This document shows positions 28,814 to 43,195 of a stretch of 48,086 bases of DNA, piece after piece. Origin of the DNA: a bacterium (GTDB lineage Bacteria > Patescibacteriota > Minisyncoccia > Phycocordibacterales > CAIZLB01). Made by a program: the position numbers and the translations under genes. The stretch spans positions 1-48,086 of the forward strand of contig JAIXXV010000028.1 in the NCBI GenBank assembly GCA_027490575.1, written 5' to 3'. The notes beneath the pieces were generated by a model. It was not told the DNA's origin and ran no database searches. It was given only the letters and a program-made list of their open reading frames with translations. Positions within the stretch are counted from its first letter, which is position 1, and every line of letters starts with the position of its first letter.

Positions 28814-28917
28814 GATTATACCTTTCTGTTTTGTTTGTTTATGTGTTTTTTTTGTCTGTCCTGATGAAAAGATCTATTTAACAAAAGAACTCCGTTATGG
28901 AGCCCTCTTGTAATCGG

Positions 28918-28991
28918 TGCGAGTACCAAGAGTCGAACTTGGGACCTCATCAGTATCAGTGATGCGCTCTAACCAGCTGAGCTATACTCGC
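28918..28991 (-). tRNA. tRNA-Ile (anticodon GAT); 3' CCA not encoded (CC then G)
   Basis: Cloverleaf: GCGAGTA acceptor, GCTC/GAGC D-stem, CATCA-CTGATAC-TGATG anticodon arm, TTCGACT T-loop, TACTCGC-A. Confidence 0.95.
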
Positions 28992-29159
28992 ATATCTATT
29001 GTGTTTTTCGTATTTTGGCAGGCTTCCTGGTAGTCTTAAAAACTACACATAATGTCAAATACGTGCTCAATACCATAACAAAAAAATCGGATAAAAACAA
29101 GGCAATGCTGGCAATTATCTATTCGCGAAAATGCCGGATAAATCTAACAAACTCTAGAC

Positions 29160-29186
29160 GTGAAAAACACCAACCTTGCGGTCGGT
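29160..29186 (-). terminator. Terminator downstream of 16S (ACACCGACC-GCAA-GGTTGGTGT + T5)
   Basis: GNRA-capped hairpin followed by a T-run. Confidence 0.85.
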
Positions 29187-29422
29187 GTCTCTCATATTTG
29201 AATTTATCTAAACAGAATAGTTATACTTTTATATTTGCATGCATCCTATACTTTTTTTGTTCTGCTTGAGCTATGGATCTTTCTCCACTGTCAAAGTCTA
29301 TTAGGTGACTTCGTCCTCCTATTTCGAGAGTTAGGAACTCCTGTTCAAATCCGCATATGCTGGATTCGAACGATCGACAAGTATATTAGTGACAGTCACG
29401 AAGACTATATAATATGATTTTC

Positions 29423-30903
<1,481 letters not shown>

Positions 30904-31092
30904 AATAAATCCGAATACATATTTACCGAAGTAACTATGTATTGATTAAAACTCAAACAGAACAAAAAAAGAATATGATGCTGTATAACTATTCTGTTGT
31001 CAAAAAACATTCTCCTGGTGACTCGTTTGACTCAAGTGGTGCCTTTCGACACTTACTTAAATAAAACGACTCTATCTAAGAGCGTGCTATGC

Positions 31093-31120
31093 ATTATACG
31101 CATATGGGAACCTTTGTCAA
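31093..31120 (-). promoter_or_regulatory. 16S rRNA promoter TTGACA-N16-TATAAT
   Basis: Minus strand TTTATTTGACAAAGGTTCCCATATGCGTATAAT. Confidence 0.9.
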
Positions 31121-31169
31121 ATAAATACTCTAATACCCTCTAATGCTGTGTGGTGGCTTAAAATATAGT

Positions 31170-31200
31170 CAAAAACACGGTTGGTGTACCCGTGTTTTTG
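31170..31200 (-). terminator. Terminator downstream of secF
   Basis: AAAAACACGG...CCGTGTTTTT hairpin. Confidence 0.75.
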
Positions 31201-31287
31201 CTATGAATTTTAACTTAAGTCAGGCAATTGGACAGGTCACCTAACATCATTGAATATAACCAAAAATGCAGGTAAGCAGCCTGAAAA

Positions 31288-32247
31288 CTAGACCTTTTTT
31301 GCTCTATTTTGGAACTTCTCCAAAGTAACAAGTAGGGGCGATGCGATGAATACAGAAGAATACACGCCTGCAGTAATACCTATTATAAGTACAAGTGAGA
31401 AATTCTTGGTAGTATCTGGACCAAAGAAAAACAGTGCAATCAAAGCAAACATCGTTGTCAGAGTTGTGTTTATAGAACGAGACATCGTCTGAGTAAGACT
31501 CATTCCAACTATTTCACCAAATGACTTTTTGTCCAGACCAATATTTTTTATATTTTCTCTTGTTCTGTCAAACACTACAATAGTGTCGTGAATAGAGAAA
31601 CCTAATATTACAAGTAGAGCTGTTATGAAAAGTGCATCTAGCTCATAACCGCCATTTCTACCTAGAAAAGCAAACAATCCTACAGGTACCAGCACATCGT
31701 GCAGTAAAGCGACGATGGCAACAGATCCATATTTCCAAGATGATACAGGCTTTGAAACTTTTCTAAATACAAATGTTATGAAAAGTACAATGGCTAGTAC
31801 AACAAGTATGATAGAAAGAATTGCTTTCTCTCTAAGCTCTCTACCGAGTACAGGACCAACTAAATCAAACTTTTTAACTTCACCTCCAAGCGATGTAGTA
31901 ACAGCTTTTCTTTGGTCTTCATTAAGTGCTTTTGTTCTGATGATATAGCCATTGTCACCTGTTTGTCTTACGACAGACTCACCTATTTCAAGATCTGCAA
32001 GTTTTTGTTTTATGACTTCAGCAGATGGAAATGAGTCGGGTTCCATAGTTCCTGCTGTTGTAGTAGACACTTTACTTGTAGCATTGGTACTACTAGCATT
32101 TGATCCAGTGTATTGAACTTCTATAACTGACCCTCCTGTAAAGTCTATACCGAAGTTTAGTCCATATCTTGAGATTGCACCTATACACAGACCGATAATG
32201 ATTATCGATATTGTATAGAATATTTTTCTTTTATTTACTATAAACAT
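31288..32247 (-). CDS. secF: Protein translocase subunit SecF
   Basis: YGLNFGIDFTGGSVIEVQY; GFSIHDTIVVFDRTREN. Confidence 0.95.
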   Translation of the reverse strand: MFIVNKRKIFYTISIIIIGLCIGAISRYGLNFGIDFTGGSVIEVQYTGSNASSTNATSKVSTTTAGTMEPDSFPSAEVIKQKLADLEIGESVVRQTGDNGYIIRTKALNEDQRKAVTTSLGGEVKKFDLVGPVLGRELREKAILSIILVVLAIVLFITFVFRKVSKPVSSWKYGSVAIVALLHDVLVPVGLFAFLGRNGGYELDALFITALLVILGFSIHDTIVVFDRTRENIKNIGLDKKSFGEIVGMSLTQTMSRSINTTLTTMFALIALFFFGPDTTKNFSLVLIIGITAGVYSSVFIASPLLVTLEKFQNRAKKV

Positions 32248-32326
32248 TTTCTTGATTTTAATTGATGATTGCTAATTTTTGTTTTGTCGGGCTAACTGAT
32301 ACCTGATATTTGATACCTGATACCTG

Positions 32327-33676
32327 TTATCTCTTAAGTCCGTGACCAAGCAAGAACTTCATCATGCCGTCTTTTCTCTTTATACCTAGAGCGAGTAGTA
32401 GAGTTCTTGTGACAGTGATAGAAGTGAATATCGAGATGATGACGCCCAATATAAATATAAGTGCAAACCCTTTGATAAGCGGTGATGTAGCAGTATAGAA
32501 CAATATCAATCCTGTGATAATACTTGAAGTGTTACTGTCTCTGATAGACAACCATGCTCTACCGAATCCTTCTTTTATAGCATCTTCTACTTCTCTACCA
32601 GCCTCAAGCTCTTCTTTGATTCTTTCGAAAATGAGTATGTTACCATCCACGGCCATACCTATCGATATGATGAAGCCGGCAAGACCAGCCGATGTTAGTA
32701 CAATACCAAATACTTTAAACGCAACAAGTGTGAGTATTATGTATATAGTCAATGATACTACTGCCAGAAGTCCGGGTAATCTGTACCAGATGATTAAGAA
32801 CAGTGCGATGATGATCAAACCGTAAATACCAGCTTGTATACTTGCAGCAAGTGCATCAGAACCAAGCGAAGCTCCGATACTTTGAGTACCTATAAGCTCT
32901 ATAGGAACAGGGAGTGCTCCGTATCTTAGGTCTCTAGCAAGGTCTCTCGCTTCAGCTGGAGTAAACACACCACTAATGACAGCCTTACCGTCAGTGATAG
33001 GCTCTTGTACTATAGGTGTAGATATTGGTTGACCATCTAGGAATATTGCCACTGTCTTGCCTACATTTTGAGTAGTTATTTCTGAAAATAGCTTTTTACC
33101 CTCTTCGTCGAAAGTAAGCGCAATCATAGGTTGATAAGTATTTTGATCAAATTCTATTTGAGCATTTTCTAAGTATCTACCAGTTAGAGCTGTTGCTTCG
33201 TATTTTACATCAAAACTTGTAACCGAACTTGTTCCACTTGAAGTTGAAGTAGCGGTAGAAAGATCAGGAACACCGGGAACTTCTATTTTAAATTCTAGGA
33301 TAGGTGTCTTTCCAATAAGTTCAACAGCTTCTTCAACATTTGTAACACCAGGAAGTTCAACTATTAGCTTATTTATGTCCCCATCAGGTCCAGAACTTTT
33401 TTGTGTTTGTACAAGAGGTTCAGCGACACCGAAAGCATTGATTCTTGATTCGATGACACCTTTTAGACTCTCCATTGATCCATCGACGTTTATAGGGTCA
33501 ATCTCTGAAACATCGGCTTGGTAAACGAGATGTGTTCCACCACTCAAATCAAGTCCAAGTTTAAATGGGAAATTTGATATGAATCCTTGATCTGGCTTTT
33601 GGGAATAGCTTACAAATGCCCCAAGTAGTGCACTTATAACTAGCAGGAGTACTGCGTAAATACGTATTTTATTCAT
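32327..33676 (-). CDS. secD: Protein translocase subunit SecD (start corrected to MNKIRIY)
   Basis: LGLDLSGGTHLVYQ; AVDGNILIFERIKEELEAGR; TATAAT 10 nt before this ATG. The supplied ORF start at 33784 is too long. Confidence 0.95.
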   Translation of the reverse strand: MNKIRIYAVLLLVISALLGAFVSYSQKPDQGFISNFPFKLGLDLSGGTHLVYQADVSEIDPINVDGSMESLKGVIESRINAFGVAEPLVQTQKSSGPDGDINKLIVELPGVTNVEEAVELIGKTPILEFKIEVPGVPDLSTATSTSSGTSSVTSFDVKYEATALTGRYLENAQIEFDQNTYQPMIALTFDEEGKKLFSEITTQNVGKTVAIFLDGQPISTPIVQEPITDGKAVISGVFTPAEARDLARDLRYGALPVPIELIGTQSIGASLGSDALAASIQAGIYGLIIIALFLIIWYRLPGLLAVVSLTIYIILTLVAFKVFGIVLTSAGLAGFIISIGMAVDGNILIFERIKEELEAGREVEDAIKEGFGRAWLSIRDSNTSSIITGLILFYTATSPLIKGFALIFILGVIISIFTSITVTRTLLLALGIKRKDGMMKFLLGHGLKR

Positions 33677-33725
33677 AATACGGTCAATTATACAGAGAAA
33701 TATAGGTCTGGCAATTGCTAATTGA

Positions 33726-35078
33726 CTAAACTCCCACTCTAGACAAGAGTGTTTTAATAGTTTGCAATGCAATCTTAAAATCAATCCAGATAGATCTGTG
33801 CTTTATATAGTATAAATCAAATGCAAGCTTCTCAACTGTTTCCTCCACTGTATGCGGTGGCTTTTCATGATGTATTTGAGCCCAACCTGAAAGACCTGGT
33901 TTTATCAGATGTCGTATATTGTAATGTGGTATCTCTTTTATATATAGATCAACCAGCTTTGGAAATTCTGGTCTTGGCCCTATAAGAGACAAGTCCCCTT
34001 TTATAATATTCCAAAGTTGTGGCAACTCATCTATACGTGTAACTCGGAGTATCTTTCCTACTTTGGTAATCTTGTTTTGGTTTTGGCCGAGTTGATTTCC
34101 ACTATCCATAACTGTCATAGTACGGAACTTATATATCTTTATCATTTGGCCGTTTTGTCCAACTCTTTCAGGCATGTAGAAAAGTGCTCCAGGTCCTTCT
34201 ATCTTCATAGCAATCCAAACAAAAGGATAGAAAAGTAGCGATACAATAAACAATGGCAGAGATAGCAATATGTCCATAAGTCTTTTTATAGACATGTAAA
34301 TGATATTGGACTCACTTGATGCATTTTTCAAAAACCATGCTTCATCAATGTGTTTTAGAGGCACCCTGCCTGTTAGATCTTCATAAAGATCATTAAAATC
34401 TATAAACTGAATACCTTTAAAAATAAGGCTGTAGAGTGAGCTTTGAATTCTTTTAGTATTTTCATCAGAAAAATCAATGATGACTGTATTGACGTCCCTA
34501 TTTGATAATTCGGTAATAATATAATCAACAAGAACATCTTCCTTTGTACTAATCAGGTCTTCTTGTCGTAGATGTGAAGTGATAATAAAAGAAGAATTAA
34601 CTGAATCTAAACTTTTTTTCAATACATCTGCATCCTCTCCGGATGCTATAAGTATTGCTTTATTTTTTTGCCTACTCTTAGCTTTGAATGAACTGTATAT
34701 CTGTATTCTCCAGATAAAGAGCATAACAGTTGAGATTAATAAGTATAGAAAAAGTATAATCTTTGGTGATATTCCAAAATAAGGAACTATATAGAAAAAC
34801 GTAGAAGCTATGACTAGATTGAAAAAATGAGCTGAAAACAATCTAGACGGTAGACGGCTCCTGATAATAAGGGTTTTGTTTTCATATAAACCGGCTATGA
34901 AGAAAACTAGTATCCACACCACAAATAACATTGAAAAAGGTATGAGGTGGCTCAAAAAAAGTTCCTGGCTTGGTATGTCGAGATTTCTTATACCCAATGT
35001 TATCCATAGAGAAAATATGAAAACAAACAAGTCTCCTACAAAAACACTTAGAAATGGGGTTTTGCTATTGAATACCAT
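33726..35078 (-). CDS. Polyprenyl-phosphate hexose-1-P transferase (bacterial sugar transferase, WbaP/exopolysaccharide-type)
   Basis: KRLMDILLSLPLFIVSLLFYPFVWIAMKIEGPGALFYMPERVGQNGQMIKIYKFRTM...LPQLWNIIKGDLSLIGPRPEFP. Confidence 0.93.
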   Translation of the reverse strand: MVFNSKTPFLSVFVGDLFVFIFSLWITLGIRNLDIPSQELFLSHLIPFSMLFVVWILVFFIAGLYENKTLIIRSRLPSRLFSAHFFNLVIASTFFYIVPYFGISPKIILFLYLLISTVMLFIWRIQIYSSFKAKSRQKNKAILIASGEDADVLKKSLDSVNSSFIITSHLRQEDLISTKEDVLVDYIITELSNRDVNTVIIDFSDENTKRIQSSLYSLIFKGIQFIDFNDLYEDLTGRVPLKHIDEAWFLKNASSESNIIYMSIKRLMDILLSLPLFIVSLLFYPFVWIAMKIEGPGALFYMPERVGQNGQMIKIYKFRTMTVMDSGNQLGQNQNKITKVGKILRVTRIDELPQLWNIIKGDLSLIGPRPEFPKLVDLYIKEIPHYNIRHLIKPGLSGWAQIHHEKPPHTVEETVEKLAFDLYYIKHRSIWIDFKIALQTIKTLLSRVGV

Positions 35079-35112
35079 CTTATGGGATACTATACTATAA
35101 TCTGCTAAAAAA

Positions 35113-36264
35113 ATGAAAATCTTATTCGCAATTACAAAGTCAAATTTTGGGGGTGCTCAAAAATACGTATATGAACTGGCTTCGCGCTATAAAGAGCTAG
35201 GTCATGATGTACAGGTGTCTGCTGGTGGCGAAGGAGTACTTAAGGACAAGCTCAATGCGGCAGGCATACCCGTTCACCACATAAGCGGAGCACAAAGAGA
35301 CATTGATATTCTGAAAGAGTTCAAGGTTGCAATCAACTTATTTAAAACTATCAGGCAAGTGAGGCCTGATGTGCTCCATCTAAACAGCCCGAAGATAGGC
35401 GGTCTAGGCGCACTTATAGGTAGAACCCTCGGTGTGAAGACTATAGTTTATACAAACCATGGATGGCCATTCAATGAACCTAGACCATTATGGCAAGTTG
35501 CCATTATAAAGACGCTGTCGTGGCTTACATTAGTGCTCAACAAAAAGACAATAGTTCTCTCAAATATAGAGTTTGATCAAGTTGCAAAATGGCCACTGGT
35601 TAAAGGAAAAGTGGTTGTTATTCCAAACGGTGTTTCTGATTTTGTTTTACTTAGTAAAGAGGATGCCGTAAAAAAGATGTCCGAGCAGACTGGTTTTGAT
35701 TTTGACAGCAAAGCGACCGAGAAAGTATTGATGATTGGTTCAATCGGTGAATTGCACAATAACAAAGGTTACACATACGCGATTGACGGCATCAAGAGTT
35801 TCATTTATCAATATCCAAATATTAAAATAAAATATATTATTATTGGTGAAGGAGAAGAAAGACAAGATTTAGAAAAAAAGATAAAGGAAGAAAAACTCGA
35901 AAACATTATTTATCTCGCTGGCCAAGTTGAAAATGCAAAGCAGTACTTAAGAGCATTTGATATATTTTTAATATCTTCCGTAAAAGAAGGCCTACCGTAT
36001 GTACTACTTGAAGCTGGCCTAGCTGATGTACCTGTCATCACCACTTCAGTTGGCGGTATCCCTGAAGCAGTAGAGAACCTAAAAGAAGCCTTGATTATAG
36101 CCCCAAAAAGACCCCAAGAAATACAGAATGCGATATTTTACGCAACGCAACATCAAGATGATTTAAGTAAAATATCGAGCGCATTTAAAAACAAAGTTTC
36201 TACTAAGTACAACTTTGAAAATATTTCAGAGAAGATACTTGAACTTTATTCAGGTAGCAATTAG
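35113..36264 (+). CDS. Glycosyltransferase family 4
   Basis: NFGGAQKYVYELASRYKELGHDVQV; SSVKEGLPYVLLEAGLADVPVITTSVGGIPEAV. Confidence 0.93.
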   Translation: MKILFAITKSNFGGAQKYVYELASRYKELGHDVQVSAGGEGVLKDKLNAAGIPVHHISGAQRDIDILKEFKVAINLFKTIRQVRPDVLHLNSPKIGGLGALIGRTLGVKTIVYTNHGWPFNEPRPLWQVAIIKTLSWLTLVLNKKTIVLSNIEFDQVAKWPLVKGKVVVIPNGVSDFVLLSKEDAVKKMSEQTGFDFDSKATEKVLMIGSIGELHNNKGYTYAIDGIKSFIYQYPNIKIKYIIIGEGEERQDLEKKIKEEKLENIIYLAGQVENAKQYLRAFDIFLISSVKEGLPYVLLEAGLADVPVITTSVGGIPEAVENLKEALIIAPKRPQEIQNAIFYATQHQDDLSKISSAFKNKVSTKYNFENISEKILELYSGSN

Positions 36265-36334
36265 CAATTAGCAAGATTTTGCGCCGACTAATAACTTTGC
36301 CAATCTCTTAATTATTAATTGATAATTATTGGTG

Positions 36335-37462
36335 TTAGCTTCCAACAAACTCATTTTGCAATAAATCTTTGTGAGTAGTCCTAGAATACTTTCTCATACC
36401 CATAAGTATACCGAGTCCGACAAACTCAGTTAGTAAGTGAGATCCGCCGTAACTCATAAATGGTATAGGTATACCCGTTACAGGCATGATACCGATATTC
36501 ATACCAATATTTATAGTCAGGTGGACCATAAAGAAAATGGCAAGTCCGACACCATAGAGTATTTCAAAGTTTGTCTCCCCTCTCATTGACCACATCAAAA
36601 TCCTTCCAATGATAATCGCATACAATATAAACAAAATAATAACTCCAACAAAACCCCACTCTTCTGAAAAAGCTGCGAATATAAAGTCAGTTTGATACTC
36701 TGGTAAAAATCTTAATCGTGACTGTGTACCGTATCCAATACCCTTTCCTGTGATTTGACCTGATCCAACAGTGACCATAGCCTGGTAAGCATTGTATCCA
36801 CTACCCCTAATATCTGCCAAAGGATGTATGAAGTTAATGATTCTAGCTTTCTGATATTCTTTAAATCCGAAGTTCCACAGTCCGGCAAAAGTAATCATAC
36901 CTATCAAAAACACCATGGCCAAATGCTTTTTGGATATACCTGAGACGAGTACCATACCAAACCAGATTGCCATGAGAGTTAGAGCTGAACCAAAGTCTGG
37001 TTGTAAAATTACTAAAAATACCAATATGCCTGCATAAATTGCAGATACAATTATGTGTTTTATGTGTGCAATCTCAATGTGCCTCCTGGAAAAATATTTG
37101 GCCAACAACAGTATTAATACTAATTTAACAAGCTCCACTGGTTGTATTGAGAAAAGCCCGCCTAAGCTTATCCAACTTTTTGCTCCTTTTGCTACAAATC
37201 CCAATGCCAATACTGACATCAAAAATGCAACAGCTAAGCCATATAGTGTGATGATTACATGAGACCTTCTGAAGAATCTAAAGTCTAGACTGCTCAGTGT
37301 AAACATTAATAAAAAACTTATACCGATCCATATAGTTTGCCTAAAGGCCAATCCATCTGTTTGATCTGTAAATGAATGTATGGTCAAAAGACTAAACGCC
37401 AATATGGGAATAAGGGCCCCAACTATATACCAATCAATATTTGATCTTAACAACTTTATCAT
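36335..37462 (-). CDS. rodA: RodA/FtsW/SpoVE family (SEDS) protein, RodA-like
   Basis: GSGYNAYQAMVTVGSGQITGKGIGYGTQSRLRFLPEYQTDFIFAAFSEEWGFVG; GIPIPFMSYGGSHLL. Confidence 0.93.
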   Translation of the reverse strand: MIKLLRSNIDWYIVGALIPILAFSLLTIHSFTDQTDGLAFRQTIWIGISFLLMFTLSSLDFRFFRRSHVIITLYGLAVAFLMSVLALGFVAKGAKSWISLGGLFSIQPVELVKLVLILLLAKYFSRRHIEIAHIKHIIVSAIYAGILVFLVILQPDFGSALTLMAIWFGMVLVSGISKKHLAMVFLIGMITFAGLWNFGFKEYQKARIINFIHPLADIRGSGYNAYQAMVTVGSGQITGKGIGYGTQSRLRFLPEYQTDFIFAAFSEEWGFVGVIILFILYAIIIGRILMWSMRGETNFEILYGVGLAIFFMVHLTINIGMNIGIMPVTGIPIPFMSYGGSHLLTEFVGLGILMGMRKYSRTTHKDLLQNEFVGS

Positions 37463-37469
37463 CTTTAGT

Positions 37470-38261
37470 TTACCTATTTTTCATATTTGAAATAGGAAGC
37501 TTTGGTACAATCTCAATCTTTGAAACTTCAAAATCAAAAGGTTTTGGCCATGTAAACACTAAGCCTTTTCTTTCATTTCCAAAAAGTACATCAACCTTGG
37601 TTCGAGATGATGCTCGTGCATTACCCAGCTCATCATAAATAATTGCCACCACTTCTATATCTCTAAATGTATCAATCGTCTCGTTTTGAATATCTGCATC
37701 AACACGTGGACCACTTTCCAAGTCAGTACGTAATCTGTCTTCGAGTATAGTAAGCTCAGACTTTACTGAGTTGTACTTTTTCCAAACTGCAGGTTCTATA
37801 AAGTTGAATGTGACTTTAGCAGGAACTCTATCACCTGTTGTAAAGACCCCTTCAAATATCGGGAATGTTCTGATTGGTGGAACAAGTGCACGACCTTCTC
37901 TTGTGCCCAACAAAATATTTGCAGAATCATAGACAGCGAATATGTAAGGTATCGGTTCAGCTGTAAATCCTACGTTTGGATTTTGAACATAGGCAACCAG
38001 GTTATTTGATCCGCCTCCTACAGGAAAAGCTCTTGTCCAAAGAAGTATGGGTTCAGGCAGTACATCACCCTGGCAAACTCTTATAGCTGAGCATGCTCCT
38101 CCACAGTCAATACCAGTCTCGTTTCCATTTTGTTTTCCATCAGAACAAGTCGGTGCCCTGTTAAAAAAGAAAAGGTAAGTCGGTAAACCTATAGCTAGAA
38201 GCAAGAAAACGCTTACTATAGATCCGTATACTAGCTGACGCTGTTTGGCCCATGAAAACAT
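37470..38261 (-). CDS. Membrane-anchored extracellular protein of unknown function (start corrected to MFSWAK)
   Basis: Single TM then CSDGKQNGNETGIDCGGACSA; TATAAT 9 nt upstream of the ATG at 38261. Confidence 0.7.
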   Translation of the reverse strand: MFSWAKQRQLVYGSIVSVFLLLAIGLPTYLFFFNRAPTCSDGKQNGNETGIDCGGACSAIRVCQGDVLPEPILLWTRAFPVGGGSNNLVAYVQNPNVGFTAEPIPYIFAVYDSANILLGTREGRALVPPIRTFPIFEGVFTTGDRVPAKVTFNFIEPAVWKKYNSVKSELTILEDRLRTDLESGPRVDADIQNETIDTFRDIEVVAIIYDELGNARASSRTKVDVLFGNERKGLVFTWPKPFDFEVSKIEIVPKLPISNMKNR

Positions 38262-38378
38262 ATTGTTGGTATTATAGCATGAAAATTGAGGCAAAATAAA
38301 AACCGGCCCTAAGATAACACTTAAGTCGCCGGTGGGTTTTGCTGGCTCCCAATGCCAGGTTAATCACATACTCATAGA

Positions 38379-38534
38379 TTAACTATTACCGAAAAAGATT
38401 CTTGCCGTCATAGATATCCGCGCTCTTTCTTCGGGTGTGTACTTCGCCATCCTGTTTCGACACTCTTGCATCGCGACAGAACCTCGTGTTTTCTGATTAG
38501 GACTTGAGGGTCCATGCCTGTTTGGTTTTTTCAT
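38379..38534 (-). CDS. 51-aa basic small protein MKKPNRHGPSSPNQKTRGSVAMQECRNRMAKYTPEERARISMTARIFFGNS
   Basis: Hand-translated ORF absent from the supplied track; followed by a CCGGC/GCCGG hairpin with T-run (about 38298-38336). Confidence 0.5.
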   Translation of the reverse strand: MKKPNRHGPSSPNQKTRGSVAMQECRNRMAKYTPEERARISMTARIFFGNS

Positions 38535-38576
38535 ACAACTTTAGGGTTGTCATACATATGATATACCTATAAAAAT

Positions 38577-38602
38577 AAAAAACCACCTATCGGTAGTGTT
38601 TT
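38577..38602 (-). terminator. Terminator (ACTACC-GATA-GGTGGT + T-rich tail)
   Basis: Hairpin with one G-U pair followed by TTTTATTTTT. Confidence 0.65.
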
Positions 38603-38638
38603 ATGTTGAAGCCTTAATTTTGTCTTGCCATTTATCGT

Positions 38639-38664
38639 TAACTTTACAATTTTTTGTAAAGTTA
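38639..38664 (-). terminator. Hairpin AACTTTAC...GTAAAGTT downstream of 5S
   Basis: Perfect 8-bp inverted repeat just after the 5S flanking stem. Confidence 0.6.
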
Positions 38665-38682
38665 AATTATATATATTGACCA

Positions 38683-38800
38683 CTCTGTTCTGGCGACGTG
38701 CTACTTTTCCCTATACGAGTATCATCGCCTCTGAAAAGCTTAACTTCTGAGTTCGGAATGAGATCAGGTGTGACCTTTTCGATAAATCACCAGAACACAA
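38683..38800 (-). rRNA. rrf: 5S ribosomal RNA
   Basis: GGTCACACCTGATCTCATTCCGAACTCAGAAGTTAAGC core; bracketed by 13-bp repeat atatatattgacc (38669-38681)/ggtcaatatatat (38802-38814). Confidence 0.93.
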
Positions 38801-38813
38801 CGGTCAATATATA

Positions 38814-39113
38814 TTTTGAAAAGCTAGAAGACAGACCAATCAAAATGATTGGTCGGGTTGGCGGGGATCGAACCCACAACCTTCGACGTTAGCTTAAACT
38901 GATTTTTAGTTGTTTAGATCATCAAGACTGATTGGTTAGACCAACAATTTTGACAGCACAACCTTCTGCTTTCACAGAATACTTCCAGGATCCGCCCAAA
39001 AAGTTCAGTACTAGGCAAACACCGGGAAACCCCGGCAAAGTCGATGCTCTCCAATTGAGCTACAACCCGTTTAAAGACAAAGAACGAATTTTCTGTCTTC
39101 TAGCTTTTCAAAA
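38814..39113. repeat. 22-bp perfect inverted repeat (38814-38835 / 39092-39113) bracketing the interrupted tRNA
   Basis: ttttgaaaagctagaagacaga and tctgtcttctagcttttcaaaa. Confidence 0.97.
38850..39069 (-). tRNA. tRNA-like gene interrupted in the anticodon loop by about 145 nt (38890-39034); anticodon uncertain (UGC reading if loop is TTTGC/AC); CCA encoded
   Basis: CGGGTTG/CAACCCG acceptor, GCTC/GAGC D-stem, TCGAC/GTCGA anticodon stem split by the insertion, GTGGG-TTCGATC-CCCGC T-arm, A73-CCA. Confidence 0.8.
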
Positions 39114-39455
39114 ATCTCAATAAATTGCAAGTAACAAACAAAAGTGATTGTGACACTCTATATTTCCTAATAGAATCGATGCATTAGTACACCTCAGCTG
39201 AACATATTACTATGCTTACACTTAGTGCCTATCAACGTGATCATCTCTCACGGATCTCAACGATACCTTATCTTGAAGCTGGCTTCGTTCTTAGATGCTT
39301 TCAGAACTTATCCATTCCCGACATAGCTACCCAGCGGTGCCTTTGGCAAGACAACTGGTACACCAGAGGTCAGTTCATCCCGGTCCTCTCGTACTAGGGA
39401 CAAATCTTCTCAAGTATCAACGCCTGCAGTAGATAGGAGACCAACCTGTCTCGCG

Positions 39456-39895
39456 CATGTTTTCACTTATTACTAAGTGCATTGGACTATATCTTTATCT
39501 TCCTCTTTGAGTCGTTATACAGGACACTTTTAAGTGTGACTATTTCACAACGTATGAGGTTCAGATAATTAACGTGTAGTCTCTACGGGCGTCGTGCATT
39601 TATTCCAAACTATAAATAGTCTAGCTCAAATATGCGCAACTTCCCTCGGTATTGTCCTAAATTGTCTCCAATATGTAGGATTTTACCGATATAAGTTAAT
39701 TTGATCATCATATATTTCTATATGCGACCGCCGCGATATGTATTTTAAATACAAAGTTTGTCTAACAGTTTTAATTCTTGATTCTACATCACATTTTAGT
39801 GTGTAGATTGTTCTAAGAGTTATGTAGCCTCAACGGTTCAGACGGGTTCAATTGTTGAATAATACAAATATAAATAAATGTAATTCCACAACTGA
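39456..39895 (-). ncRNA. Group I intron at 23S position L2593 (440 bp, no ORF)
   Basis: Interrupts ACCGT^CGCGAGACAGG; P7-type elements GTAGAGACTACACG (39573-39586) and AAGATATAGTCC (39484-39495); 5' exon ends in U, intron ends in G; GACCGU/GCGGUC possible P1 with U-G. Confidence 0.92.
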
Positions 39896-40561
39896 ACGGT
39901 CTGAACCCAGCTCGCGTGACTTTTTAATTGGCGAACAGCCAAACCCTTGGGACCTTCTCCAGCCCCAGGATAAGTCGAGCCGACATCGAGGTGCCGAACT
40001 GTGCCGTCGATATGGACTCTTAGGCACAACCAGCCTGTTATCCCCAGAGTAGCTTTTATCAGGTAATCTTCACCCGCATCTAATGCGAAGTGTACGGTTC
40101 ACTATGTTCTGCTTTCGCATCTGTTTGACACTTACGTCTCACAGTTAAGCCAGCTTATGCCATTGCACTATCGGCACGGTTTCCATTCGCGCCTAGCTGA
40201 CCTTAATAAACTCCTCCGTTACTCTTTAGGAGGATAGCGCCCCACCAAAACTGCCCACCAGATACTGTTCCTGTCCGTTTTTATACCGTACAGGTTAGAA
40301 TATACATTTTTAAAGAGTGGTATTTCACTGACGAGTCCATCCCAACCGAAATCGGAACTTCAACCTCTCCCACCTATGCTACGCAGTAAATATATATATT
40401 CAATACCAAGTTGCAGTGAAGCTTCTGGGGTCTTTTCGTCTAACTGCAGGTAGGAGGCATCTTCACCTCCATTGCATTTTCACCGAGCGGGTCTTCGAGA
40501 CAGTTCCCCAGTCATTATACCATTCGTGCGCGTCTGAACTTACCAGACAAGGAATTTCGCT

Positions 40562-40787
40562 CTTCTATTCCTTACAGAAGGACTCTATCTTCATCCGATT
40601 CAAAATTTCTTTAGAATTTAGGATGCATGGCGTTGGTCTCTCGCTAACCATGTTTGGACTATAGATACATTACTGTATCCAAGGTAGCTAGTATATGACT
40701 TTATCACTATCTCAATCTGTTAACTTATTTACCATCAACCCTATAACTGTCCTAGTCCTTCATCACACTTTAAATAAAATGTGATGA
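40562..40787 (-). ncRNA. Compact group I-type intron at 23S position L1931 (226 bp, no ORF)
   Basis: Interrupts CGGTCCTAAGGT^AGCGAAATTCC; S-like AAGATAGAGTCC (40580-40591), R-like GCGAGAGACCAACGCC (40629-40644); 5' exon ends in U, intron ends in G. Confidence 0.8.
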
Positions 40788-40822
<35 letters not shown>

Positions 40823-42242
40823 CAGGGCTTACACCATCCAGCCACATATTGCTATGGGACCGCCAGCGTTTGACCTTCTGGCATTGGTCAGGCATCACCC
40901 CCTATACATCCTCTTGCGAGTTCGCAGGGAGCTGTGTTTTTGGTAAACAGTTGCCAGGGAATCTTTTGTTGCAACCCTATTGCTAGGGCGAGCCTTATTC
41001 CGAAGTTACGGCTGCTTTTTTGCCGAGTTCCTTGAAGACCTCTCACTCGTTCACCTTAGTCTACTCGACTCGATCACCTGTGTCGGTTTTAGGTACGGTT
41101 TTCATATATATTAAGTTTAGAAGTTTTTCTCGGAAGCGTGCTTTGTCTAATCGACAGGAGGCGAACCCCCCGCTGTATCACTCTGCTTGGAATCGGTATT
41201 GAAACCAGTCTCCGGATTTACCTAGAGAACATCCTTACAGCATGAACGCAAATCCATTTGATGCGCTAGACATACTACACTTCGTCCCTCCATCACTATA
41301 CATGAAAGTCATGGAATATTAACCATGTGTCCATCGGGTCCGGCTCTCGCCATCCCCTTAGGCCCGACTAACCCTTCGTCGACAATCGTTGCGAAGGAAA
41401 CCTTGATCTTACGGTGTCGGGGTTTCTCACCCCGATTGTGGTTACTTGTGCCAACATTCTTACTTCTTGACGCTCCAGCATGGGTCACCCCTTTGCCTTC
41501 ATTGCGGACAAGAACACTCTCCTACCGATTCATACATCCGAAGACATATGAATCCCTCAGTTTCGGTATCATGTTTTAGCCCCGATTATCTGCGGCGCAA
41601 AGTCTCTTGATGAGTGAGCTGTTACGCTATCTTTCAAGGATTGCTGCTTCTAAGCAAACCTCCTCATTGTCTATGAAACTTCACCACCTTAAGTGCACTT
41701 AACATGAATTTTGGGACCTTAAATAGAGATCTGGGCTGTTTCCCTTTTGACCAGTGAAGCTTAGCCCCCACGGTCTAACTGCCACGCTTTAATCTTTAGT
41801 ATTCGGAGTTTGATAGGACTTGCGAGATTTCTCCCTGTCAAGTCCTTCCAGTGCTCTACCCCTAAAGGGAACACGTGACGCTAACCCAAAAGCTATTTCG
41901 GAGAGAACCAGCTATTACCAAGCTCGATTAGCTTTTCACTTCTTACCACAAGTCATCCCAATGAGTTGAACGACATACGGGTTCGGGCCTCCATTTATCT
42001 TTCGATAAACTTCACCCTGCTCATGGCAAGCTCGCATTGGCTTCGGGTCTAATACAAACTACGTACGCGCTATTAACACTCGGTTTCCCTATGGCTCCAT
42101 CCTCGCGGACTTAGCCTGCAGTTTGTATTAACTCGTTGGCTCATTCTTCAATAGGCACGCCGTGACGGAACGTATAAATACGTCCGCTCCGACTCCTTGT
42201 AGGCATATGGTTTCAGGTCTATTTCACTGTCCTTTCGGACTT

Positions 42243-42279
<37 letters not shown>

Positions 42280-43195
42280 ATCACAACAATATATTTAGCC
42301 TTAGCAGTTAGTTCTGCTGGATTCCTCCGAGCTATTCGTGTCTCGAAGTACTCAAGAATGACGGTAAGAGATATTTTGTTTTCGTATACGGGGCTATTAC
42401 CCTCTTGGGCCACACTTCCCAGTGTGTTCTACTAACAAAACATTTTGTAACTCTTTGAATATAAATATTCTACCATCACCTTACAACCCCGAGCCGCCCA
42501 ATAGATAACACAGAAAGAAAAACTTGCGCTTAACTAATTGTATTATCTATGGGATGGCTCGGTTTGGGCTTCTTCCTTTTCGCTCGCCGCTATTCAGGAA
42601 ATATTTCTCTTACGAGATTGTTTTCTTTTCCTCCAGGTACTAGAATGTTTTACTTCCCTGGGTACGCATCTTGATAAATCAAGATCACAGATCAAGTCTG
42701 TGGGGTTCCCCCATTCGGAAATCTCCGGATCAAAGATTGCTTAGCATCTCCCCGAAGCGTATCGCCGCTATGCTGCGTCCTTCATCGCTCTGTTGTGTCA
42801 AGGCATCCACCATACGCCCTTAATATTTCCATTAGGAAATATAAAGACCACAATCACTTTTGTTTGTTACCTGCCCCACTTTCTTCTTGAGAAAAGAAAA
42901 GTGGGATTGTCGAAACCAAGAAGAAGGTTTAGAACTTCCTGATCTCGACTCTACCTCTGATATGAAAAGACCTCCATAGAAATCAAACAGACTTATCACC
43001 TGTTTGATTCCAAATGAATCAGGGTAGAATTTAGTTGTCAAAGATGTATGTCTTTCTGAGTGATCCTGGTAAAACTTTTTTCTCATTTAAAAGAAAATCG
43101 CTCTTTTTGAGAGCGGTCTTTTCAAGTAGCGCCTTTGTCAGACGTTACTTAATCAGACCGTTCTACTAAGATGATTAACATAACTGATAAGAGCT

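What the first reader, a model, noticed from the sequence alone, without database searches (positions are those of the whole stretch)
38850..39069. tRNA-like gene split in its anticodon loop by about 145 nt, located between 23S and 5S
All cloverleaf arms are present on both sides (CGGGTTG/CAACCCG, GCTC/GAGC, TCGAC/GTCGA, GTGGG/CCCGC, A73-CCA), but the anticodon loop is TTTGC-[~145 nt]-AC. Splicing there would give TTTGCAC, identical to the E. coli tRNA-Ala(UGC) loop, yet acceptor C1-G72 and G3-C70 lack the G3-U70 alanine determinant. A group I-style rule (exon ...TT, intron ends ...AAG) would instead give TTCTAAC, a CUA anticodon, but TAG is used as a stop in this window. The insertion shows no clear group I P7 signature, so its class is unclear.
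Basis: partly seen in the sequence, partly recalled or inferred. Interest (0 to 1): 0.82.

Follow-up and report, generated by a model that had tools for sequence, protein, structure and literature searches.

The report
Broken tRNA-like spacer in rRNA operon
Between the 23S and 5S ribosomal RNA genes of this tiny uncultured bacterium (Paceibacterota) sits a tRNA look-alike whose decoding half is interrupted by 145 bases while its upper half is perfect; its relatives carry many different, similarly broken look-alikes in the same place, which suggests a cutting signal for making ribosomal RNA rather than a working tRNA.

Summary
On the minus strand, 39069->38850, a tRNA-like cloverleaf has a perfect acceptor stem, D stem, T arm and A-CCA, and its anticodon loop is interrupted by 145 nt. 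The intron-tRNA reading is not supported. The genome has tRNAs for all 20 amino acids elsewhere, including Ala(UGC). Every 7-nt loop it could make is Ala(UGC), Ser(UGA) or a stop anticodon, and UAG ends genes here. A group I model finds the intron that splits tRNA-Asn(GUU) in this genome and two in the 23S, but nothing here; RtcB is absent.
Comparison explains it better. In 136 23S-5S spacers of this order, 34 hold 40 tRNA top halves (about 0.1 expected). In 30 of these the D/anticodon half is non-canonical, against 0 of 74 ordinary tRNAs. None were found in 87 spacers from elsewhere in the phylum. In this genus they sit on the tip of an 18-23 bp stem, often after a boxA-like motif, and differ completely between species. 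A few sit inside the 23S gene.
Most likely this is a non-decoding element used for rRNA cutting (RNase III plus RNase P), like plant mitochondrial t-elements. The cutting is inferred, not shown.

The parts
38850..39069 (-). tRNA-like element, C1 at 39069, A73 at 38853, CCA 38852-38850
39040..39069 (-). 5' half: acceptor 5' strand, D arm GCTC-AATTGGA-GAGC, anticodon stem 5' strand TCGAC
   Evidence: sequence; ARAGORN structure
38893..39037 (-). 145-nt structured insert in the anticodon loop (ends as placed by ARAGORN; can slide by several nt)
   Evidence: loop plus insert fold z -3.05; no Rfam family at E<=10 except a T-arm fragment outside it
38850..38892 (-). 3' half: CTAAC, anticodon stem 3' strand GTCGA, AGGTT, T arm, acceptor 3' strand, A-CCA
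39092..39113 (-). 5' arm of perfect 22-bp inverted repeat enclosing the element (TTTTGAAAAGCTAGAAGACAGA in RNA sense)
38814..38835 (-). 3' arm of the same inverted repeat
38835..38853 (-). small hairpin ACCAATCA-TTT-TGATTGGT that includes A73-CCA
   Evidence: fold and sequence
39078..39085 (-). boxA-like GTTCTTTG between the stem and the tRNA-like
   Evidence: sequence; motif present in 20 of 34 element-bearing spacers against 3.3 expected
39167..42833 (-). 23S rRNA gene, upstream
38688..38794 (-). 5S rRNA gene, downstream

Best explanation
The element is a tRNA-derived, non-decoding structure on the tip of a long stem in the 23S-5S spacer. Its upper half (acceptor plus T arm, with encoded CCA) is intact; its lower half no longer matters for decoding and has taken up a 145-nt insert. 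Most likely the stem is cut by RNase III and the tRNA-like top half by RNase P, separating the 23S and 5S precursors, and the excised piece is discarded. Shown here: anatomy, recurrence at the same site, asymmetric decay, and presence of RNase P RNA and RNase III genes. Inferred: the cleavages and the benefit. Probable but not proven: descent from a tRNA-Pro gene that once stood in this spacer.
For: Of 136 spacers in the order, 34 hold 40 perfect top halves (null about 0.1); 30 of 40 lower halves are non-canonical against 0 of 74 ordinary tRNAs. Inserts occur in anticodon loops (this one, L079, L195) and D loops (L128, L138, L148, L156). Same-genus relatives share flanks and a stem of 18-23 bp whose arms changed together, yet carry unrelated elements, whereas tRNA-Asn is identical in this genome (spliced) and G001. 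Encoded CCA in 22/40 against 14/74; C1-G72, a proline trait, in 16/40 against 7/74; intact Pro(TGG/CGG) tRNAs occupy some spacers. None of 87 spacers elsewhere in the phylum hold one. RNase P RNA and RNase III are present. All 20 amino acids are served elsewhere.
Against: No RNA data: neither expression nor cleavage is shown. About 100 of 136 spacers, including close relatives (G008, G012), have no such element, so it is not required. The search demanded a perfect top half, so retention of the top half is partly built in. A few spacer elements look like functional tRNAs. Pure relics are not excluded.
Confidence: 0.58

Rival explanations
1. Pseudogene only: a tRNA gene that stood in the spacer lost its role, decayed, and does nothing.
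For: Elements are absent from most spacers and turn over quickly within the genus; lower halves vary without pattern.
Against: The top half of this one is perfect (7/7 and 5/5 pairs, TTCGATC, ACCA) next to a 145-nt insert; the asymmetry recurs in many families of the order, as do encoded CCA and the enclosing stem (15 of 34 beyond all 30 shuffles).
Confidence: 0.27
2. A functional tRNA interrupted by a degenerate or unknown self-splicing intron.
For: The anticodon stem is intact; a U at the end of the 5' exon and a G at the end of the insert are possible; ARAGORN models it as a 145-nt intron; group I introns do split tRNAs in this genome.
Against: Rfam group I model finds tRNA-Asn (66 bits) and two 23S introns (45 and 20 bits) but not this. 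The group I rule gives CUA, and UAG ends 9 of 29 window genes; other joins give UUA, UGA or UGC, the last two already served. RtcB not found.
Confidence: 0.09
3. A tRNA held together as two pieces: the insert is cut out like a 23S intervening sequence, without joining, and the fragmented tRNA still acts.
For: The insert is strongly folded and RNase III is present.
Against: Cutting inside the anticodon loop leaves no complete anticodon with a useful meaning; no amino acid lacks a tRNA.
Confidence: 0.03
4. Assembly or binning artefact.
For: The window is one contig of a 42-contig assembly.
Against: Both halves pair, the enclosing 22-bp repeat pairs, the 23S and 5S flanks match relatives, and the class recurs in independent genomes.
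Confidence: 0.02

Closest known systems
Plant mitochondrial t-elements (PMC11658184, citing Forner 2007 and Hanic-Joyce 1990)
   Same: tRNA-derived structures next to rRNA or mRNA whose cutting by RNase P and RNase Z defines transcript ends; [quoted passage not shown]
   Different: Here in a bacterium, with CCA often encoded, on the tip of a long stem, and with large inserts in the lower half; cutting not demonstrated.
Group I introns in bacterial tRNA and rRNA genes, common in CPR rRNA (PMC11270868)
   Same: Sits in an anticodon loop; the same genome has group I introns in tRNA-Asn and 23S.
   Different: No match to the group I model, only 145 nt, and no sensible spliced product.
23S intervening sequences cut out by RNase III (described in PMC11270868)
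   Same: Long stem flanking disposable RNA in an rRNA transcript.
   Different: Carries a tRNA-like on its tip; usually in the 23S-5S spacer, though a few lie inside 23S.
Ordinary spacer and distal tRNAs of bacterial rRNA operons (own knowledge)
   Same: tRNA gene in the rRNA transcript; some relatives have intact Pro(UGG/CGG) here.
   Different: Decoding half broken in most cases.
tmRNA
   Same: tRNA top half with the anticodon arm replaced by other RNA.
   Different: The genome's tmRNA is elsewhere (C32, 103.8 bits); no G3-U70.

Membership tests
Group I intron | Catalytic core recognised by RF00028 | tested here: not met
   No hit at E<=10 while three other introns of the genome are found
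Group I intron | U at end of 5' exon and G at end of intron | tested here: inconclusive
   Possible only in the register that yields anticodon CUA
Group I intron | Splicing to a functional product | not testable with these tools
   No RNA data
Functional tRNA-Ala(UGC) | G3-U70 identity pair | tested here: not met
   G3-C70; Ala(UGC) exists at C12 (L013)
Functional elongator tRNA | 7-nt anticodon loop with U33 | tested here: not met
   Loop interrupted by 145 nt; same trait broken in 30 of 40 spacer elements
t-element (tRNA-like processing signal) | tRNA-like fold next to an rRNA or mRNA end | tested here: met
t-element (tRNA-like processing signal) | Cut by RNase P / RNase Z | not testable with these tools
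   Only presence of RNase P RNA shown; RNase Z not tested
t-element (tRNA-like processing signal) | Not aminoacylated, not used in translation | not testable with these tools
   Supported indirectly by a complete tRNA set
tmRNA | Match to RF00023 over its cut-off | tested here: not met
   Only an 8.5-bit T-arm fragment here; real tmRNA at C32

The most novel reading that the evidence does not exclude
One order of Paceibacterota uses exchangeable tRNA-like cassettes (boxA-like motif, long stem, tRNA top half, free lower half) as cutting signals in rRNA transcripts, in the 23S-5S spacer and sometimes inside 23S itself: a bacterial counterpart of t-elements.
Probability: 0.4. Interest if true: 0.75.

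Novelty: new variant of a known kind. Interest (0 to 1): 0.6.

Why it matters
If right, selection on the tRNA top half is naturally uncoupled from selection on the decoding half, which makes the idea that RNase P needs only acceptor plus T arm testable across dozens of natural variants. It would give CPR bacteria, which lack many ribosome-biogenesis factors (PMC12641178), an RNA-based way to separate 23S and 5S. It also warns that tRNA finders will report false suppressor or odd tRNAs from these operons: ARAGORN calls Pyl, Stop and two-way anticodons here.

Tried and rejected
Group I intron: rejected by the RF00028 searches. Missing tRNA-Asn rescued by this locus: rejected, because tRNA-Asn is split by a true group I intron at C6. 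tmRNA-like molecule: rejected. RtcB-dependent splicing: ligase not found. Mobile insert present elsewhere: no second copy in the genome or in 60 relatives, no exact match in viral contigs, only T-arm-sized phage matches. Same element in relatives: no DNA-level homolog. I expected the element to be shared by the genus; it is not. No covariance model of CPR tRNA group I introns was built.

Full report
1. What is there. On the minus strand, 39069 to 38850, the window holds a tRNA-like element: CGGGTTG-TA-GCTC-AATTGGA-GAGC-A-TCGAC-[TTTGCC ... AAGCTAAC]-GTCGA-AGGTT-GTGGG-TTCGATC-CCCGC-CAACCCG-ACCA. It lies between 23S (42833->39167) and 5S (38794->38688). Plain ARAGORN and Rfam miss it; ARAGORN allowing introns reports tRNA-Pyl(cta) with a 145-nt intron. 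The stretch between the two anticodon-stem strands folds with z = -3.05. A perfect 22-bp inverted repeat, 38814-38835 and 39092-39113, encloses the element.

2. Not a needed tRNA. The genome (772 kb, 42 contigs, 93% complete) has 36 tRNA matches over cut-off. These cover every amino acid except Asn, including Ala(UGC) and Pro(UGG); one that ARAGORN does not call has the loop CTCATAA (read by eye). The missing tRNA-Asn(GUU) is at C6, split by a group I intron of 66 bits; its joined exons equal the intronless tRNA-Asn of the same-genus genome G001 (by eye). For the window element, the possible 7-nt loops read CUA, UUA, UGA or UGC (by hand). UGC and UGA are already served, the latter by a long-variable-arm tRNA-Ser, and UAG and UAA end 9 and 18 of 29 window genes. 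Alanine's G3-U70 is absent.

3. Not a recognisable intron. RF00028 finds the tRNA-Asn intron and two introns in this 23S (39463-39738, 45.4 bits; 40565-40788, 20.3 bits) but nothing at the split tRNA at E<=10. RtcB is not found, though nine control genomes give it. The tmRNA is elsewhere. A strongly degenerated intron cannot be excluded.

4. The comparison that changes the picture. I took 23S-5S spacers from relatives (136 spacers, 47 to 870 nt). Searching only for the tRNA top half (7-bp acceptor, 5-bp T stem, TTCRA-type loop) finds 40 elements in 34 spacers, against 0.1 expected from Markov shuffles. Lower halves: 10 canonical, 7 with a 7-nt loop but no U33, 23 otherwise non-canonical. The same test on 74 ordinary tRNAs gives 74 canonical (Fisher p = 3e-19). 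Caveats: the control tRNAs were found by ARAGORN, which favours canonical forms; one of the 30 (second hit in L148) is a misplaced register of an intact Pro(CGG) tRNA; genomes in one family are not independent. A less biased control, the same search over 992 kb outside spacers, gave 69 canonical and 18 others. By my reading 14 of these are chance, one (L065) is a tRNA-Asp whose span overlaps a group I match, and three lie inside 23S genes.

5. How the lower halves are broken. Inserts in the anticodon loop: this element, L079, L195. Inserts in the D loop: L128, L138 (second element), L148, L156. Loops without U33: L083, L085, L096, L122, L129, L136, L192. Loops of other sizes: L090, L102, L165. 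Encoded CCA is commoner than in ordinary tRNAs (22/40 against 14/74, p = 1e-4), and so is C1-G72 (16/40 against 7/74, p = 2e-4). C1-G72 with A73 is a proline-tRNA trait (own knowledge). Spacers with intact Pro(TGG) or Pro(CGG) tRNAs exist (L125, L138, L148, L170). This suggests, without proving, that a spacer tRNA-Pro was the source of many elements, including this one (C1-G72, A73, loop beginning TTTG).

6. Architecture. In the genus, 18-23 bp stems enclose the elements: TTTTGAAAAGCTAGAAGACAGA in this genome, AATTTTGAAAACTTAGAG in G005 and G004, AATTTTAAGGTTTAAGAGAGAG in G003, each with its complement, so the arms changed together. The elements inside are unrelated to each other. In the sister genus, G006 and G014 carry elements in such a stem while G008 and G012 have short spacers without one. 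Over the order, 15 of 34 enclosing helices exceed all 30 shuffles. A boxA-like G[TC]TCTTT occurs in 20 of 34 element-bearing spacers (3.3 expected) and 9 of 102 others (4.5 expected); that this motif resembles the rRNA antitermination boxA is own knowledge. Outside the order none of 87 phylum spacers has an element.

7. Inside 23S too. In L064 two tRNA-likes, and in L113 and L146 one each, lie within the LSU rRNA match; the one in L113 lies within a group I intron match.

8. Mechanism. RNase P RNA (E = 4e-22, below Rfam's gathering score) and RNase III (261 bits) are in the genome; CPR keep RNase III in general (PMC12641178). That bacterial RNase P reads mainly the acceptor-T half and the CCA is own knowledge. 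A tRNA-like with a free lower half on the tip of an RNase III-type stem fits a cutting signal that separates 23S from 5S. The closest known parallel is the plant mitochondrial t-element, which is cleaved and CCA-tailed but not charged (PMC11658184). No cleavage was shown here, and a pure relic remains possible.

9. Novelty. The ten paper searches available found no description of such elements in CPR rRNA operons; the study of insertions in CPR rRNA genes does not contain the word tRNA in its main text (PMC11270868). The held library is open-access only, so earlier description elsewhere is possible.

Noticed in passing
L064:1498-1569 and 1594-1755; L113:940-1011; L146:648-728: tRNA-like elements inside the 23S rRNA gene itself; the one in L113 lies within a group I intron match; boxA-like GTTCTTT nearby.
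   Followed up: partly
G000:C6:19264-19590 (L207:1477-1803): tRNA-Asn(GUU), the only Asn tRNA found in this genome, is split by a 254-nt group I intron after U35; the same tRNA in same-genus G001 has no intron.
   Followed up: yes
window 39463-39738 and 40565-40788, minus strand: Two group I introns in the 23S gene of the window (45.4 and 20.3 bits).
   Followed up: partly
L065:2473-2756 and 1062-1360: tRNA-Asp in G093 whose halves flank a group I match, and a second group I match nearby.
   Followed up: no
window 28916-42833: 16S plus tRNA-Ile lies about 8 kb downstream of 23S-5S on the same strand, with protein genes between: a split rRNA operon.
   Followed up: no
L081 and L070 spacers: Copies of a tRNA 3' end (in tandem in L081) with a shared palindromic unit (GTACACCTTTTG...CAAAAGGTCTT), perhaps a small repeat element.
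   Followed up: no
L047:1498-1572: tRNA-like with an 8-nt anticodon loop (TCCA) in G097; no 23S, 5S or 16S match in that locus.
   Followed up: no
G000:C10:12868-13342 (L206): RNase P RNA is long (475 nt) and scores only 71 bits, below the gathering score.
   Followed up: no
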